A stretch of DNA of 42,150 nucleotides from an uncultured delta proteobacterium (GTDB lineage: Bacteria > Myxococcota > Myxococcia > Myxococcales > 40CM-4-68-19): assembly GCA_903911145.1 (NCBI GenBank), contig CAIWCD010000008.1, positions 1 through 42,150 on the forward strand, read 5' to 3'. The position numbers were made by a program, and so were the translations under genes. Of this stretch, positions 1 to 42,150 are shown one piece after another. How positions within the stretch are numbered: position 1 is the stretch's first letter; every line of letters begins with the position of its first letter. Below the pieces are notes generated by a model. That model made no database searches. It saw nothing but the letters and a program-made list of their open reading frames with translations, and was not told the DNA's origin.

Positions 1-312
1 GAACCATCGCCCGAGCCATCGCTGGAACCGTCGCCGGAGCCATCGCTGGAGCCATCGCCGGAGCCATCGCTGGAGCCATCGCTGGAGCCATCGCTGGAAC
101 CGTCGCTGGAACCGTCGCCCGAGCCATCGCTGGAACCATCGCCCGAGCCGTCGCTGGAACCATCGCCCGAGCCGTCGCTGGAACCATCGCCCGAGCCGTC
201 GCTGGAACCTTCGCCCGAGCCGTCGCTGGAACCATCGCCCGAGCCGTCGCCCGTCCCGTCGCCGGAACCATCGCCCGACCCATCGCTGGAACCGTCGCCG
301 GACCCGTCGGTG
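1..312 (-). repeat. 12-bp tandem repeats coding [S/G]DGS
   Basis: About 26 consecutive 12-base units with variants such as GAACCATCGCCC and GAGCCGTCGCTG. On the minus strand each unit encodes Ser/Gly-Asp-Gly-Ser inside the hub gene. Pairs of units form 24-base blocks that are nearly identical around 130-240, which suggests recent slippage or recombination. The array continues beyond the window edge. Confidence 0.95.
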
Positions 313-2063
313 GCGTCGTCAATGTCGAGTTCGAGCGTGTATTCACCCTCGGGAACATCGTCGAGATGGACGTGGCCGAGGATGTCGGTGGTGATCGAGC
401 GCGTACTGCCGTCGGAGAACGTGACCGTGCCGGAAACGGCGGCCATCGGCTGACCGTCGTCACCTCCGACGACGTCGAAGTCAATGCTGGTCAGCCGCGG
501 CCCGTCGCCCGAGCCGTCGCCGGAGCCGGAGCCCCCGCCGCAGCAGTCATCGTCGGAGAACGTGATTGTGTACGCGCCCTCGGGAACCTCATCGAGGCGA
601 ACGTTGCCAAACGCGTCGGTGATCACGTCGATCGTGCTGCCGTCGGAGAGCGTGACCTGTCCGGACGCACCGGCGATCGGGCGGTTGTTGGTCGCGTTGA
701 CGAGCGTGACCTCTATGAACGTCAGCGGCGGCTGCGCCTCGAGGATCTCGACGACGTAGTTGCCCTCGTCGACCTCGTCGATGTGAACGTGACCGTCGCT
801 GCCCGACGTCGTGTCGATCGGGTCCTTGCCCGGAATGTGGATGCGAATCTTCGCGTCGGGGATCGCGTTCCCGTCGTCGTCCTGCAGAATGAAATCGATG
901 TCCTGCTGGGGAGGACCGGACTGGTCGCTGTCACCGCTTGCGTCGTTGTTGGCGCCTGTCGGATCGGTGTCGTTGTTGTCGTCGTTGTCGTGGACGTCGT
1001 CGTTCGACGAATCGCCCCACTTGTCGCGCGCCACGTAGAAGACGACGACATATCCGGCAGCGTCGTAGAAGTGCTCGGCCTCGGTGACAACATACTTGCC
1101 CGAGTAGACGCCGACCTTCTTGATGTTGACCATCGCGCCGGGCTTGACAGCCGGGTCCCCGCGGACCTCGACCTCGGCGGTGATGAACTCCATCTGCGCG
1201 TGCGTCAGCGAAGCACCTGCGCAGGTGTCCGCGTGGGCCTGGTTGAGCACCTTCGCTTCAGCAAATGCGCGCTCGGCCTTCTCCGAGCCGAACCGGACCA
1301 TGTCGACGCCGGCCTTGCCTCCGGGGACGGTCCAGAACTCCTTGCCCTTGGCCGCGTTCCCCTCGAGGCCGGTCTTGCCCGCCGAGTCCCAGCCGAGGAC
1401 CTTGACCTTCGCGAGAGGCTTCCTGAAGTTCGCGACCGGGAGGAAGGTCTTGACCTCCACGCCGAAGGTGAAGACGCAGTCGTCCGAGTCCGAGAGGTGC
1501 GGGCGCTCGAAGTGGAGATCGTCGCCTTCGACCCAGAGGAGATAGCCCTCCTGCTCGGCGATGCGGCGCAGGAACGAGTAGTCGCTCTCGTTGGCTTGGA
1601 AGCGGAACGCCGAGACGGGATCGGGTCCGTCGCCCTTGTTGGTGTGGGGCGTGAGGCCTGCGTCGTTGCAGATCTGCTGCACGACGGTGAACGGCGTCGC
1701 GCCGGCATAGGTCTTGGTCTTGGTTCCGCGCATCAGCCGATGCGACTTGTCCATTCCGCGCAGGACGAGAACGACCGGACCGTTGCGCTCGAGTTCGCTG
1801 CGCCAGGCAGTGACTTCTCCCTCGAAGACGGTCTTGAGCTTGCCGACGGTGCCGAGGTCGATCTTGACCTTCGTGCAGTCCGCGAATGTGGGATCCGACT
1901 GCCACTTCAGTGCGGGATCAGAGACGACGATCTCAAATGCAGTCGCAGCGGTTCGCGTCTGGAAGACACGAATGGCGAGAACGGCGGCCGCCGCAGCCGG
2001 GTCCAGCTTCGTTCCATCGAGGTAGATGGCGAAGTCTGGTTTGTAGGAAGAGTCGTCGGGCAC
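1..2063 (-). CDS. Phage gpD/VgrG/Pvc8-like tail hub protein with repeat tail (partial)
   Basis: This reading frame runs off the left edge, leaving 687 codons in the window. Residues ~1-350 look like a late-control-D/VgrG-type hub: a beta-rich N-terminus, then [16 protein letters not shown] (~162-177), typical of the second hub barrel, and a late part around [22 protein letters not shown]-rich linker (~351-385) leads to three similar ~55-residue beta domains (~388-441, 448-503, 523-580) sharing a 'DG..T.(x)G.V.(L/I)(D/E).V.EG.Y' pattern, like carboxypeptidase-regulatory or Cna-B folds. A [S/G]DGS tail follows. The start is taken as GTG, because no in-frame ATG lies upstream; GAGG sits 11 bases ahead of it. 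Hubs of this family cap the tail tube of contractile phages and injection systems, and C-terminal additions often carry spike or cargo functions. A paralogue starts at 38835. The system type and the role of the tail are unknown. Confidence 0.75.
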
Positions 2064-38633: not shown

Positions 38634-38717
38634 GGGGTCGTGGCGGAATTGGTAGACGCGCGGGACTTAAAATCCCTTTCCCGAAAGGGAGTCCGGGTTC
38701 GATTCCCGGCGACCCCA
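38634..38717 (+). tRNA. tRNA-Leu (anticodon UAA)
   Basis: A class II tRNA of 84 nucleotides including the discriminator A. The acceptor arm is GGGGTCG/CGACCCC. The D-loop region is TGGCGGAATTGGTAGACGC, the anticodon loop CTTAAAA gives anticodon TAA (reads UUA), the long variable arm is CCC-GAAA-GGG, and the T-arm has GGGTTCGATTC. CCA is not encoded. A run of seven T (38723-38729) follows and probably ends transcription. Confidence 0.97.
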
Positions 38718-38743
38718 CTCTGTTTTTTTCTTCGATCGCCACA

Positions 38744-38794: not shown

Positions 38795-38834
38795 TACTCC
38801 CGCAGAGTTGCTTCCTTTCGTCGCTGAGGCGCGT

Positions 38835-41800
38835 TTGGCCGAATCCGCCAGACTGGTCCCAAACTGCAAGGTGACGGTCGACGGCCAGGCCCTCGACCCG
38901 GCGCTGCAGGCCGGTCTGGTCCACCTCTCGGTCGACCTCGACTCGGATCTGTTTGCGCAGACGACGCTGCTCTTCGCCGATCCGCAGATGAAGCTGATGG
39001 GCGGCGACACCTTCGCGTGCGGCGCGACGGTCAAGATCCGCCTCGGCTACGGCGCCAATCTCGAGACCCTCTTTGACGGCGAGGTCGTCCGCCTCGAGTC
39101 GCAGTTCCGCAAGGACCAGCCGATCGCGCTCCAGATTGTCTGCCAGGAGCCGCTGCACCGGCTCGCGCTTTCGCAGTCGACTCGCTCGCTCAACAACGTC
39201 GACGTCTCGGAAGTGGTCAAGCAGATCGCGCAGGACCACGGCTTCTCCTCGGACGCGCCGAGCGGCACCAAGCAGCACATCATGCAGGGCAACGTCACCG
39301 ATGCCGTGATGCTGCGGCGCCTCGGGTCGCGCCTCGGCATGCGCGTGCGCGTCGAGGGCAAGAAGTTGATCATGGGGCCGCCGCCGAGCACGCAGTCGAT
39401 CGCGCTCGCGATGTCCGACGGGATCCGCAAGATCAAGGTTCGCGTCAAGTCGGGCGGGCAGATCAGCGAGATCGCCGTCCACGGCTGGGATCCGGCGAAC
39501 AAGCGCGACGTGGTCGGCAAGGCCAAGGCTCCCTCGGGAGACGTCGGAAAGGGCGCCAAGGATCACGGCGACGGCGCGAGCCTCGCGGACTCGAGCGGCG
39601 ACAATCTCCCGCCTGACGTCTCGACGGCCGAATCGATGGCCAAGGGCCGCATGCAGAAGATGGCCGAGGGGTTCATCAAGTCGCAGACCGACATGATCGG
39701 CGACCCGCGGATGGTGCCCGGCCAGACCTTCGACTTCGACAAGTTCGGGCCCAACATCGACGGGACCTGGCGCATCGAGCGGGCGCTGCACGACTTCAGC
39801 CGGCGCGGATATTTCGTCAAGATGGAGGCGGTTCGCGTCTCGGCGAAGAAGCCGCAACCGCCCGCGGCGCCGGTCAAGAAGAACGAGAAGAAGGAGGACA
39901 AGGACGGGCAGCTGGTGCGACCGCGCTGGAAGCGGCGCGACAGCGGGCAGAACGACGTCGCCGACATGGCGGTCGATGCCTCGAAGGCGCTCGACGGCAA
40001 GTCGGTCAAGTTCACGCTCGAGACGAAGGTCAATGGCAAGTGGAAGCAGGTCGCCGAGGCGCAAGGTTCGGTGAACTCCGGAACCGCCACCGCGACAGCC
40101 AACCTCGACAAGCTCGACGCCAGCGACTTCTCCAATCCCAAGTGGACGGCGGCGAAGAAGTCGGCGCACACGCACGGCGACTCGGGCGAAGTTTCGATGA
40201 AGGCGAAGGCCAAGGACGGCACGCAGGTCCGCATCATCCTCGAGCAGCAGAACGGCACAGGCTGGGAGCGGGTCGCGCAGAAGATTGCAAGCGTCAGCGG
40301 AGGCGAGGTCAAGGCCGCGTTCACGCTCACGCATCCGTTTGAGGCCGAGGCGAACAAGCCGGACAACAAGCTGCTCAAGCTGCCGACCTGGACGGCCCAT
40401 CCTTCTGCTCACGGCTCGAGCGGCACGCTCCAGGTCCGCGCGCCGGGCCTGCCCGATGGCCGGATGGTCCAGTTCGACGTCGAGAGCCAGGGCGCAGACG
40501 GCAAGTGGAAGCTCGTGCGCTCGGTGCAGGGCAAAGTCGATCATGGCACCGCGACCGTCTCGCTGCCGGACTTGCGGCACCCCGCGAACAACGCGCAGCC
40601 TGCACACGCCGACGTGCTGAAGAATCCGCTTTGGGACAAGAGCGATCTCTCGCACGGCGATGCGGGCAAGTTCAGCGTCGAGGCGCCCGACCTTGATGGT
40701 CGGACTGTGGCGTTCATCCTCGAGCGCAACGACAACAACCAGTGGGTCCAACTCCTGCGCACGATGGCGAAGGTCGCGGGAGGGAAGGCCTCGGCGACTG
40801 CCTCGATCTCGCATCCGACCACTGTGGCGCGCGGCGCGAATGCAGAGGGCGCGACCGAACGGCCCAGGTTGACCAATCCTCGCTGGGGCAGCAAGGCACT
40901 GTTCCACGGCAATCAGGTGAAGGCGCTCGTGGATGCCGCCGGGCTTGATGGGGCGACCGTGCAGTTCCTCGTCGAGCGGCTTGAGGAAGGCGGTTGGCTC
41001 GAGGCCGGACGCGGGACGGCGCCCGTGGTGAGCGGCAAAGCGGTTGGCCTGATCACGGTGCAGCATCCCGGCGCAGATGCGTCGCTGCGCAAGTTCCGCT
41101 TCCGCTCATCCGTGATTGCGAATCCTGGCGAAGCGCTCGAAGCGCCGCTCGATGCGAAGTACGACGAGGAGACCGGAAGCGTCACCGCAACCACCGTTGG
41201 AGCCAACAACGGCCGCACCGTCCGCTTCACGCTCGAAGAACAAAAGGCGACCGGATGGAGCACCGTCGGGTCTGCGATCGGCAAGGTCGCCAAGGGTATC
41301 GCGCGCGCGAAACTTCCGGTGCACCACAAGGCGGGCGCGAAGCTCTCCTCTCCGCGGTGGGGCAAGGGCGATCTCGCGCACGGAGACAAGGCCGAGCTGA
41401 TCGTCGATGCGCGTGGGCTCAATGGGCACCGCGTGACGTTCTCGCTGGAGAAGTTCGCGAACCAGCAGTGGACGTCGATCGGAACGGCCGTGGCTACCGT
41501 GGTCGGCGGAACGGCGACGGGCAAGATCACGGTTCGGCACAGCGACCCAACGACACCGCGAAGCAAGCTGCGTTTCTCTGCCGCGCTCGCGAACCCGCCG
41601 CAGATTCGTGCGCGTGCCGAGCTGGTCGCGGACACCGATGCTCGCAGCGTTCGCTTCCGCGCCGAGCTGGTTCCCGATCACACGAAGCAGAAACTGCGCT
41701 TCACCGCCAAGCCCGTGCCGGACCTGAACGGGACCCGCATGCGCTTCCGCGGCGAGGTTCCGGTGCCGCTCGATCCTGCGCTCACCCGGATGCGCGCGAG

Positions 41801-41855
41801 CGTAGTCGGTGGCGGCGCAGACGATGTGCAGGCCGGCGGCGCAAGTTCGAGCTGA
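38835..41855 (+). CDS. Phage gpD/VgrG-like tail hub with seven Ig-like repeats
   Basis: A 1006-residue protein. Residues ~1-335 form a gpD/VgrG/Pvc8-type hub (VPNCKVTVDGQALDPALQAGLVHLSVDLDSDLF, FFDGEV-like LFDGEVVRLES, then LGSRLGMRVRVEGKKLIMGPPPS and MVPGQTFDFDKFGPNIDGTWRIERALHDFSRRGYFVKMEAVRV). A charged linker (KPQPPAAPVKKNEKKEDKDGQ) leads to seven ~65-residue repeats at ~361, 434, 517, 598, 682, 762 and 840. Most follow the pattern P-x-W....(L/A)xHG(D/S/N) ... (L)(D/N)G..V.F.(L/V)E....W ... V..G.A. The tail (~911-990) has four short RF.A.LVPD-like units. The TTG start is chosen because GAGG lies five bases before it. The repeats suggest an extended, perhaps surface-exposed or cargo-binding fibre. 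The partner system is outside the window. Confidence 0.8.
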   Translation: MAESARLVPNCKVTVDGQALDPALQAGLVHLSVDLDSDLFAQTTLLFADPQMKLMGGDTFACGATVKIRLGYGANLETLFDGEVVRLESQFRKDQPIALQIVCQEPLHRLALSQSTRSLNNVDVSEVVKQIAQDHGFSSDAPSGTKQHIMQGNVTDAVMLRRLGSRLGMRVRVEGKKLIMGPPPSTQSIALAMSDGIRKIKVRVKSGGQISEIAVHGWDPANKRDVVGKAKAPSGDVGKGAKDHGDGASLADSSGDNLPPDVSTAESMAKGRMQKMAEGFIKSQTDMIGDPRMVPGQTFDFDKFGPNIDGTWRIERALHDFSRRGYFVKMEAVRVSAKKPQPPAAPVKKNEKKEDKDGQLVRPRWKRRDSGQNDVADMAVDASKALDGKSVKFTLETKVNGKWKQVAEAQGSVNSGTATATANLDKLDASDFSNPKWTAAKKSAHTHGDSGEVSMKAKAKDGTQVRIILEQQNGTGWERVAQKIASVSGGEVKAAFTLTHPFEAEANKPDNKLLKLPTWTAHPSAHGSSGTLQVRAPGLPDGRMVQFDVESQGADGKWKLVRSVQGKVDHGTATVSLPDLRHPANNAQPAHADVLKNPLWDKSDLSHGDAGKFSVEAPDLDGRTVAFILERNDNNQWVQLLRTMAKVAGGKASATASISHPTTVARGANAEGATERPRLTNPRWGSKALFHGNQVKALVDAAGLDGATVQFLVERLEEGGWLEAGRGTAPVVSGKAVGLITVQHPGADASLRKFRFRSSVIANPGEALEAPLDAKYDEETGSVTATTVGANNGRTVRFTLEEQKATGWSTVGSAIGKVAKGIARAKLPVHHKAGAKLSSPRWGKGDLAHGDKAELIVDARGLNGHRVTFSLEKFANQQWTSIGTAVATVVGGTATGKITVRHSDPTTPRSKLRFSAALANPPQIRARAELVADTDARSVRFRAELVPDHTKQKLRFTAKPVPDLNGTRMRFRGEVPVPLDPALTRMRASVVGGGADDVQAGGASSS

Positions 41856-41962: not shown

Positions 41963-42150
41963 ATGGGCGAAGAATCGACCTCAACAGACGACCCAACGCC
42001 TGCCGCGCCTGCGCCGGAATCCTCGCAGCCTGACGCGCCCGCGCCGGAATCCTCGCAGCCTGACGCGCCCGCGCCGGAATCCTCGCAGCCTGACGCGCCC
42101 GCGCCGGAATCCTCGCAGCCTGACGCGCCCGCGCCGGAATCCTCGCAGCC
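41963..42150 (+). CDS. Ala/Pro/Ser/Glu repeat protein (start only)
   Basis: This frame begins 108 bases after the hub gene and runs off the right edge: MGEESTSTDDPTPAAPAPESSQPD, then repeats. AAGGAG lies six bases before the ATG (an ATG six bases earlier would leave no spacing). Every 10 residues the motif APAPESSQPD recurs, so it is an unstructured linker in a longer protein. Same orientation as the hub suggests one operon. Possible roles are a tether or a spike or effector loader, but the functional domain lies outside the window. Confidence 0.65.
   Translation, partial: MGEESTSTDDPTPAAPAPESSQPDAPAPESSQPDAPAPESSQPDAPAPESSQPDAPAPESSQ
42001..42150 (+). repeat. 30-bp exact tandem repeats at the right edge
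   Basis: Five consecutive 30-base units: the first a variant, the next four identical at DNA level, coding APAPESSQPD. The array continues past the edge. Perfect DNA identity indicates recent expansion or gene conversion. Confidence 0.97.

What the first reader, a model, noticed from the sequence alone, without database searches (positions are those of the whole stretch)
38835..41855. Tail-hub protein extended by seven Ig-like 'HGD' repeats
A gpD/VgrG-type hub (~335 residues) is fused to seven repeats of ~65-85 residues with the common core W....HGD ... G..V.F..E ... W ... G.A, then a second, shorter RF.A.L repeat series. Hubs normally end after the barrel or carry one effector or Ig domain. 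A seven-repeat fibre of this kind is, to my knowledge, not a described hub architecture. It could expose binding modules or hold cargo.
Basis: partly seen in the sequence, partly recalled or inferred. Interest (0 to 1): 0.75.

Follow-up and report, generated by a model that had tools for sequence, protein, structure and literature searches.

The report
Injection-machine hub with seven Ig-like beads
In an uncultured myxobacterial lineage, a spare copy of the hub of a phage-tail-like injection machine carries seven Ig-like beads and sits directly in front of a large candidate cargo gene; sister hubs carry other modules at the same spot, so this looks like one of several exchangeable loading ends for a single machine.

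Summary
Window 38835-41855 (+) encodes a gp27/gpD-type hub (about 330 aa) followed by seven units with a W....HG[DSN] core. AlphaFold2 folds one unit as a seven-strand Ig-like sandwich; the units sit as beads on disordered linkers. The 'second RF.A.L series' is the last strand of the same unit, repeated. The domain has no Pfam or PDB sequence match and was found only in one GTDB family of Myxococcales. The hub is closest to eCIS/CIS hubs (Streptomyces, AlgoCIS, Anabaena), not T6SS VgrG. The genome holds one eCIS-type cluster and one spike gene on another contig, no VipB, TssK or Hcp, and at least four hubs. Related orphan hubs carry unrelated C-termini: transthyretin-like, Ig, amidase, phosphatase, protease-like, helical rods or nothing. 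Downstream, across a repeat-broken contig end, lies a ~960-aa candidate cargo whose Ig domain and C-terminus recur beside a one-unit HGD protein elsewhere in the genome. In relatives, some HGD genes flank orphan Hcp or gp19 tube genes. Best explanation: a 'specialised' orphan CIS hub whose HGD array docks co-encoded cargo. Identity is well supported; docking is inferred. New variant of a known kind.

The parts
38634..38718 (+). tRNA-Leu(taa), ending 116 bp before the hub start codon at 38835
   Evidence: ARAGORN; no tRNA found in the other hub loci scanned
38835..41855 (+). orphan hub gene, TTG start with GAGG upstream (38808 TTG is the alternative)
38850..39842 (+). gp27/gpD-type hub domain (residues 15-345)
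   Evidence: pLDDT mostly 80-95 outside a loop near 210-290; Z 28.9 to 9gtr
39912..40112 (+). HGD Ig-like unit 1 (residues 369-435)
   Evidence: HMM
40128..40337 (+). HGD unit 2 (441-510)
   Evidence: HMM
40374..40586 (+). HGD unit 3 (523-593)
   Evidence: HMM
40617..40817 (+). HGD unit 4 (604-670)
   Evidence: HMM
40869..41069 (+). HGD unit 5 (688-754)
   Evidence: HMM
41136..41333 (+). HGD unit 6 (777-842), degenerate, no W/HGD signature
   Evidence: HMM
41343..41543 (+). HGD unit 7 (846-912); a 104-residue fragment around it was folded: seven strands, pLDDT 79, pTM 0.70
41583..41852 (+). C-terminal tail with repeated 'RFxAxLV' last-strand motif (residues 926-1015), largely low confidence
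   Evidence: sequence
41963..42150 (+). 5' end of downstream candidate cargo gene (ATG after AAGGAG), running into a 30-bp tandem repeat that breaks the contig; inferred to continue on contig C1:3-2849

Best explanation
The gene encodes a spare (orphan) hub of an eCIS-type contractile injection machine. Three copies of its gp27-like domain would replace the resident hub on top of the single spike made by the C24 cluster. Where fused hubs run on into the OB-fold and needle, this one runs into a flexible string of seven Ig-like HGD domains. I propose that the string is a docking arm: it captures the protein encoded directly downstream (low-complexity arm, Ig domains, ~520-aa C-terminal domain) so that this cargo is fired with the hub-spike. 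Other hubs of the genome and family, with other C-terminal modules, would load other cargo on the same machine. Shown: hub identity, seven Ig-like units (predicted fold), absence of T6SS markers, one CIS cluster and one spike, several hubs, exchange of C-termini, position of the downstream gene. Inferred: use of the C24 machine in trans, docking, secretion and the target.
For: Hub. Ig units. One CIS cluster (sheath x2, gp19 tube x2, CIS_tube+LysM, baseplate J, Tail_P2_I, Pvc16_N) and a single Phage_base_V spike. No VipB, TssK or Hcp. At least four hubs in the genome. Exchangeable C-termini on closely related hubs: and tree (L057 with ~900-aa extension and L058 without are sisters, 100/100; the two HGD hubs are sisters, 100/99). 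PAAR-hub-DUF4123 order in a relative. Downstream gene. Its Ig domain matches the Ig domain of an HGD-carrying protein on C39 (z 9.2), whose next gene weakly resembles its C-terminus (z 5.7). HGD proteins beside orphan Hcp or gp19-like tube genes. T6SS precedent: a VgrG C-terminal TTR domain binds Tle1 (PMC10433429, PMC7043769).
Against: No interaction or secretion could be tested. The C35 HGD hub is followed by different proteins, with no sequence match to the C1 protein. HGD domains also occur in proteins without a recognised hub or tube gene nearby (C2, C14 and the conserved loci of L120, L122, L126, L129), so the domain is not strictly tied to hubs. The C8-C1 join rests on a shared 30-bp repeat and orientation. 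The C1 protein has no Pfam or PHROG match, so 'effector' is a guess.
Confidence: 0.5

Rival explanations
1. The HGD array is itself the delivered effector or a target-binding adhesin: the hub carries seven Ig-like modules into, or presents them to, the target cell.
For: Other hubs of the type end in enzyme-like domains (amidase, DSP phosphatase by Pfam, HExxH by reading); some good structural matches of one unit are adhesin repeat domains (8f90, 8fha, Z 9.1).
Against: No catalytic signature seen in the repeats; a separate large candidate cargo follows the gene; adhesin matches rank among many unrelated Ig-like domains.
Confidence: 0.2
2. The array is only a spacer or stabilising stalk of the hub with no binding role.
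For: Units diverge (29-40% identity to unit 7) and linkers are disordered; hub reading frames vary widely in length between genomes.
Against: The same unit occurs in other proteins with other N-termini, five times in one C35 protein; seven folded units are costly as a spacer.
Confidence: 0.15
3. The hub belongs to a degraded prophage or tailocin and the repeats are decoration.
For: The hub domain matches phage tail profiles and phage hub structures; it lies beside a tRNA gene.
Against: Read by eye, the neighbours look like sucA and ffh, with no phage genes; no phage record matches by tblastn; the closest hubs are CIS hubs; orthologues recur as orphans across the family.
Confidence: 0.05
4. The hub works with another, undetected contractile system, not the C24 cluster.
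For: The assembly is in 53 contigs; the hub differs strongly from the C24 hub (28% identity).
Against: Genome 99% complete; only two sheath genes, both in C24, and one spike gene.
Confidence: 0.1

Closest known systems
Specialised ('evolved') T6SS VgrGs with C-terminal adaptor or effector domains, e.g. EAEC VgrG with TTR domain binding Tle1 and P. aeruginosa VgrG2b (PMC10433429, PMC7043769)
   Same: gp27-type hub with an extra C-terminal module; orphan hub genes next to candidate cargo; in a relative, PAAR and DUF4123 genes beside the hub
   Different: No OB-fold or needle in the chain, no T6SS markers in the genome, module is seven Ig-like HGD units
eCIS/CIS hubs: S. coelicolor CIS (9gtr), AlgoCIS Alg8 (7aef), Anabaena CIS All3320 (7b5h), Pvc8, Afp8
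   Same: Hub domain fold and nearest sequence profile; genome has an eCIS-type cluster
   Different: Those chains are 529-643 residues long and Alg8 is a gp27-gp5 fusion (PMC8894135); here hub and spike are separate genes, and this hub is an orphan with a repeat arm
Ig-like domains of GH2 enzymes and bacterial adhesin repeats (by fold only)
   Same: Ig-like beta-sandwich, Z 9-11
   Different: No sequence relation found in Pfam or PDB

Membership tests
gp27/gpD-type CIS hub | gp27-like fold of the N-terminal domain | tested here: met
   AlphaFold2 residues 15-345; Z 28.9 (2.6 A over 325) to 9gtr_q, 26 to 7b5h and 7aef
gp27/gpD-type CIS hub | profile match over curated cut-off | tested here: not met
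   Phage_GPD 23.8 bits against 30.1; NF033848 96.6 against 275. The orthologues L048 and L049 do pass Phage_GPD
eCIS hub (Afp8/Pvc8/Alg8 type) | hub fused to gp5-like OB-fold and needle | tested here: not met
   No Phage_base_V match in the protein; the only one in the genome is a separate gene, C24:244391-245068
eCIS hub (Afp8/Pvc8/Alg8 type) | encoded inside the CIS gene cluster | tested here: not met
   The window hub is on another contig; the hub next to the sheath genes is the 4339-aa one
T6SS VgrG | T6SS core genes in the genome | tested here: not met
   No VipB/TssC, TssK or Hcp match in the genome
Specialised (evolved) hub with extra C-terminal module | extra C-terminal domain after the hub | tested here: met
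   Seven Ig-like units
Specialised (evolved) hub with extra C-terminal module | module acts as effector or adaptor | not testable with these tools
   needs binding and secretion assays
Known Ig-like Pfam families (Big_14 and others) | match at curated cut-off | tested here: not met
   Best Ig-type hit Big_14, E 0.058, 13.8 bits against 27 in the whole protein; one of 21 units at E 0.073
Phage hub | phage genes alongside or a close phage relative | tested here: not met
   neighbours by reading of the ORFs are not phage genes; no tblastn match in 50,697 phage records

The most novel reading that the evidence does not exclude
A non-T6SS, eCIS-type machine that uses one spike and several interchangeable hubs, each with its own cargo-docking end, and a new Ig-like domain family (HGD) that serves as the common docking unit on hubs and on proteins encoded beside orphan tubes in one myxobacterial family.
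Probability: 0.35. Interest if true: 0.7.

Novelty: new variant of a known kind. Interest (0 to 1): 0.5.

Why it matters
Several hubs with swappable cargo ends on one machine are known from T6SS (for example ten vgrG genes in P. aeruginosa PAO1, PMC7043769); the paper searches made here found no such description for an eCIS-type system. A one-machine, many-hubs arrangement would show how such machines diversify cargo without changing the machine, and would give a natural multi-unit docking arm to study.

Tried and rejected
Pfam, NCBIfam, PHROGs, PADLOC and PDB profile searches found no known family for the repeat; single weak hits such as DUF7161 and MarR_2 match one member each and are taken as chance. 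Foldseek matches of one unit spread over many Ig-like folds with none at E 0.001 or below, so the fold says nothing about function. Prophage origin was rejected. Eye-based similarity of the C1 protein to the C35 805-aa protein was not supported (z 2.2; no phmmer match). L048's C-terminal Ig domains are not detectably related to the cargo Ig (z 0.9). A tRNA-linked island was considered; no tRNA was found in the other hub loci scanned. My first cut of the repeats by eye gave eight segments, one of which (751-789) is not a repeat unit; the HMM boundaries replaced it. Paper searches for orphan eCIS hubs or Ig-like hub extensions found no description, but the library lacks most subscription papers.

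Full report
What is there. The window is a whole contig (C8, 42,150 bp) of a 5.3-Mb genome in 53 contigs, 99% complete. Close hub homologues are named as Myxococcales or Deltaproteobacteria MAGs. The ORF 38808-41855 (+) codes for 1015 aa; 38835 is the likelier start. Residues 15-345 are a gp27/gpD-type hub. The nearest PDB sequences by profile are 9gtr (E 6e-40), 7aef, 9rce and 7b5h, then Pvc8 and Afp8; T4 gp27 (0.03) and a T6SS VgrG (7q5p, 0.32) are far weaker. By structure the best matches are the hubs of the S. coelicolor CIS (9gtr, Z 28.9), the Anabaena CIS (7b5h, 26.4) and AlgoCIS (7aef, 26.2); phage and T6SS hubs follow at about Z 23.

The repeats. An HMM finds seven units and no more. 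In a pairwise test that I cut by eye into eight segments, the seven segments that carry repeat units score z 5 to 21 against shuffles with each other; the remaining 39-residue segment, lying between units, stays at background in six of its seven comparisons and reaches z 3.2 in one. One unit with its six siblings as alignment folds as seven strands, pLDDT 79, pTM 0.70. VIA-align gives Z 9-11 to the Ig-like domain of GH2 enzymes and about 9 to Brr2 and to adhesin repeats, so Ig-like is supported at the level of fold. In the full-length model the units are islands of moderate pLDDT (about 60-80) between stretches under 50, so beads on flexible linkers and not a rigid fibre; unit 4 is poorly modelled there. 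The full unit, clearest in the C35 paralogue, runs from 'L.NPRW....HG' to 'LRFxAxL'. The domain has no Pfam family and no PDB sequence match, and was found in 7 of 195 genomes searched across the phylum, all in one GTDB family.

The machine. The genome has an eCIS-type cluster on C24 with baseplate J, Tail_P2_I, Pvc16_N, two sheaths, two gp19 tubes, CIS_tube+LysM and a Phage_base_V spike; a gp25-like gene is assigned by reading. It has no VipB, TssK or Hcp match, one spike gene, and sheath genes only on C24. It has at least four hubs: the 4339-aa hub in the cluster, this one, a four-unit HGD hub on C35, and another at window 1-2063 with transthyretin-like domains.

Exchangeable ends. Orthologues of this hub (46-55% identity) occur as orphans through the family. 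Their C-termini differ completely: CarboxypepD/transthyretin-like domains (L052 by Pfam; L050, L051, L054 by reading), Ig-like by reading (L048), an OmpA+amidase fusion (L053), HExxH-containing ends by reading (L049, L054), a long helical rod (L056), ~900 aa without a known family (L057), or only a short tail (L055, L058). More distant members of the order (34-38% identity) end in a DSP phosphatase of the polymorphic-toxin type (L059) or at the hub itself (L060). In the hub tree L057 and L058 are sisters with very short branches though one has a 900-aa extension and the other almost none; L048, L051 and L053 are close with three different ends; the two HGD hubs are sisters (100/99). One relative has PAAR-hub-DUF4123 in a row; DUF4123 proteins are known T6SS effector adaptors (PMC10433429).

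The neighbour. A gene starts at 41963 after AAGGAG and runs into a 30-bp tandem repeat where the contig ends. The same repeat, same strand, opens contig C1 and was found nowhere else in the genome. There the frame continues for 948 aa: repeat arm, Ig-like region, about 520 aa with a hydrophobic stretch, no Pfam or PHROG family. Its first Ig domain matches that of a C39 protein (z 9.2) which has its own low-complexity arm and one HGD unit, and the gene after that C39 protein weakly matches the C1 C-terminus (z 5.7; not found by phmmer). So the same kinds of parts meet HGD units at two loci in different order. In three relatives' loci HGD genes lie beside Hcp genes, and in a fourth between two gp19-like tube genes. 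In the C35 operon two proteins after the HGD hub share an N-terminal domain by test (E 1e-9), and by eye others do.

Mechanism. I take the HGD array as a docking arm of a specialised hub that uses the C24 machine in trans. What is shown and what is inferred is listed under the best explanation. The T6SS precedent for docking on a hub extension is the TTR domain of EAEC VgrG (PMC10433429). Against it: HGD domains also occur in proteins with no recognised hub or tube nearby, and nothing here tests binding.

Verdict. It is a new variant of a known kind (specialised hub), with an undescribed Ig-like domain and, for an eCIS-type machine, a one-spike, many-hubs arrangement that I did not find described.

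Noticed in passing
G000 C24:220361-233380 (L009/L016): The hub next to the sheath genes is 4339 aa: hub plus about 3,400 Ala/Lys-rich, apparently helical residues and a low-complexity tail. A long hub next to Pvc16, sheath and tube genes recurs in L062, L064 and L067 (1372-1822 aa), and incomplete long versions in L063, L065, L066. Possibly a hub fused to a tape-measure-like rod.
   Followed up: partly
window 1-2063 (-): A further orphan hub with CarboxypepD/prealbumin-like domains, running into a 24-bp tandem repeat that ends the contig.
   Followed up: partly
L125 7817-9812, L127 6829-8846, L123 6341-8051, L119 7270-9522: HGD proteins beside orphan Hcp genes or between two gp19-like tube genes; an 'RFRV' N-terminal segment precedes an Hcp domain in L125:9186-9812.
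   Followed up: partly
L007 4394-8440 (+) and L008 670-8291 (-): C35 operon and neighbour: large proteins with an apparently common N-terminal domain; one has a phosphodiester glycosidase (NAGPA) domain.
   Followed up: partly
L056 (G001:C18): An orphan hub of the window type in the same genus carries a long helical extension similar in look to that of the C24 hub.
   Followed up: no
L012 9123-11975 (G000 C14) and L118, L120, L122, L124, L126, L129: Proteins with a conserved 'SRPLKTG..F.LVLP..R' N-terminus plus three to six HGD-like units, next to a conserved short gene; no hub or tube gene recognised nearby.
   Followed up: no
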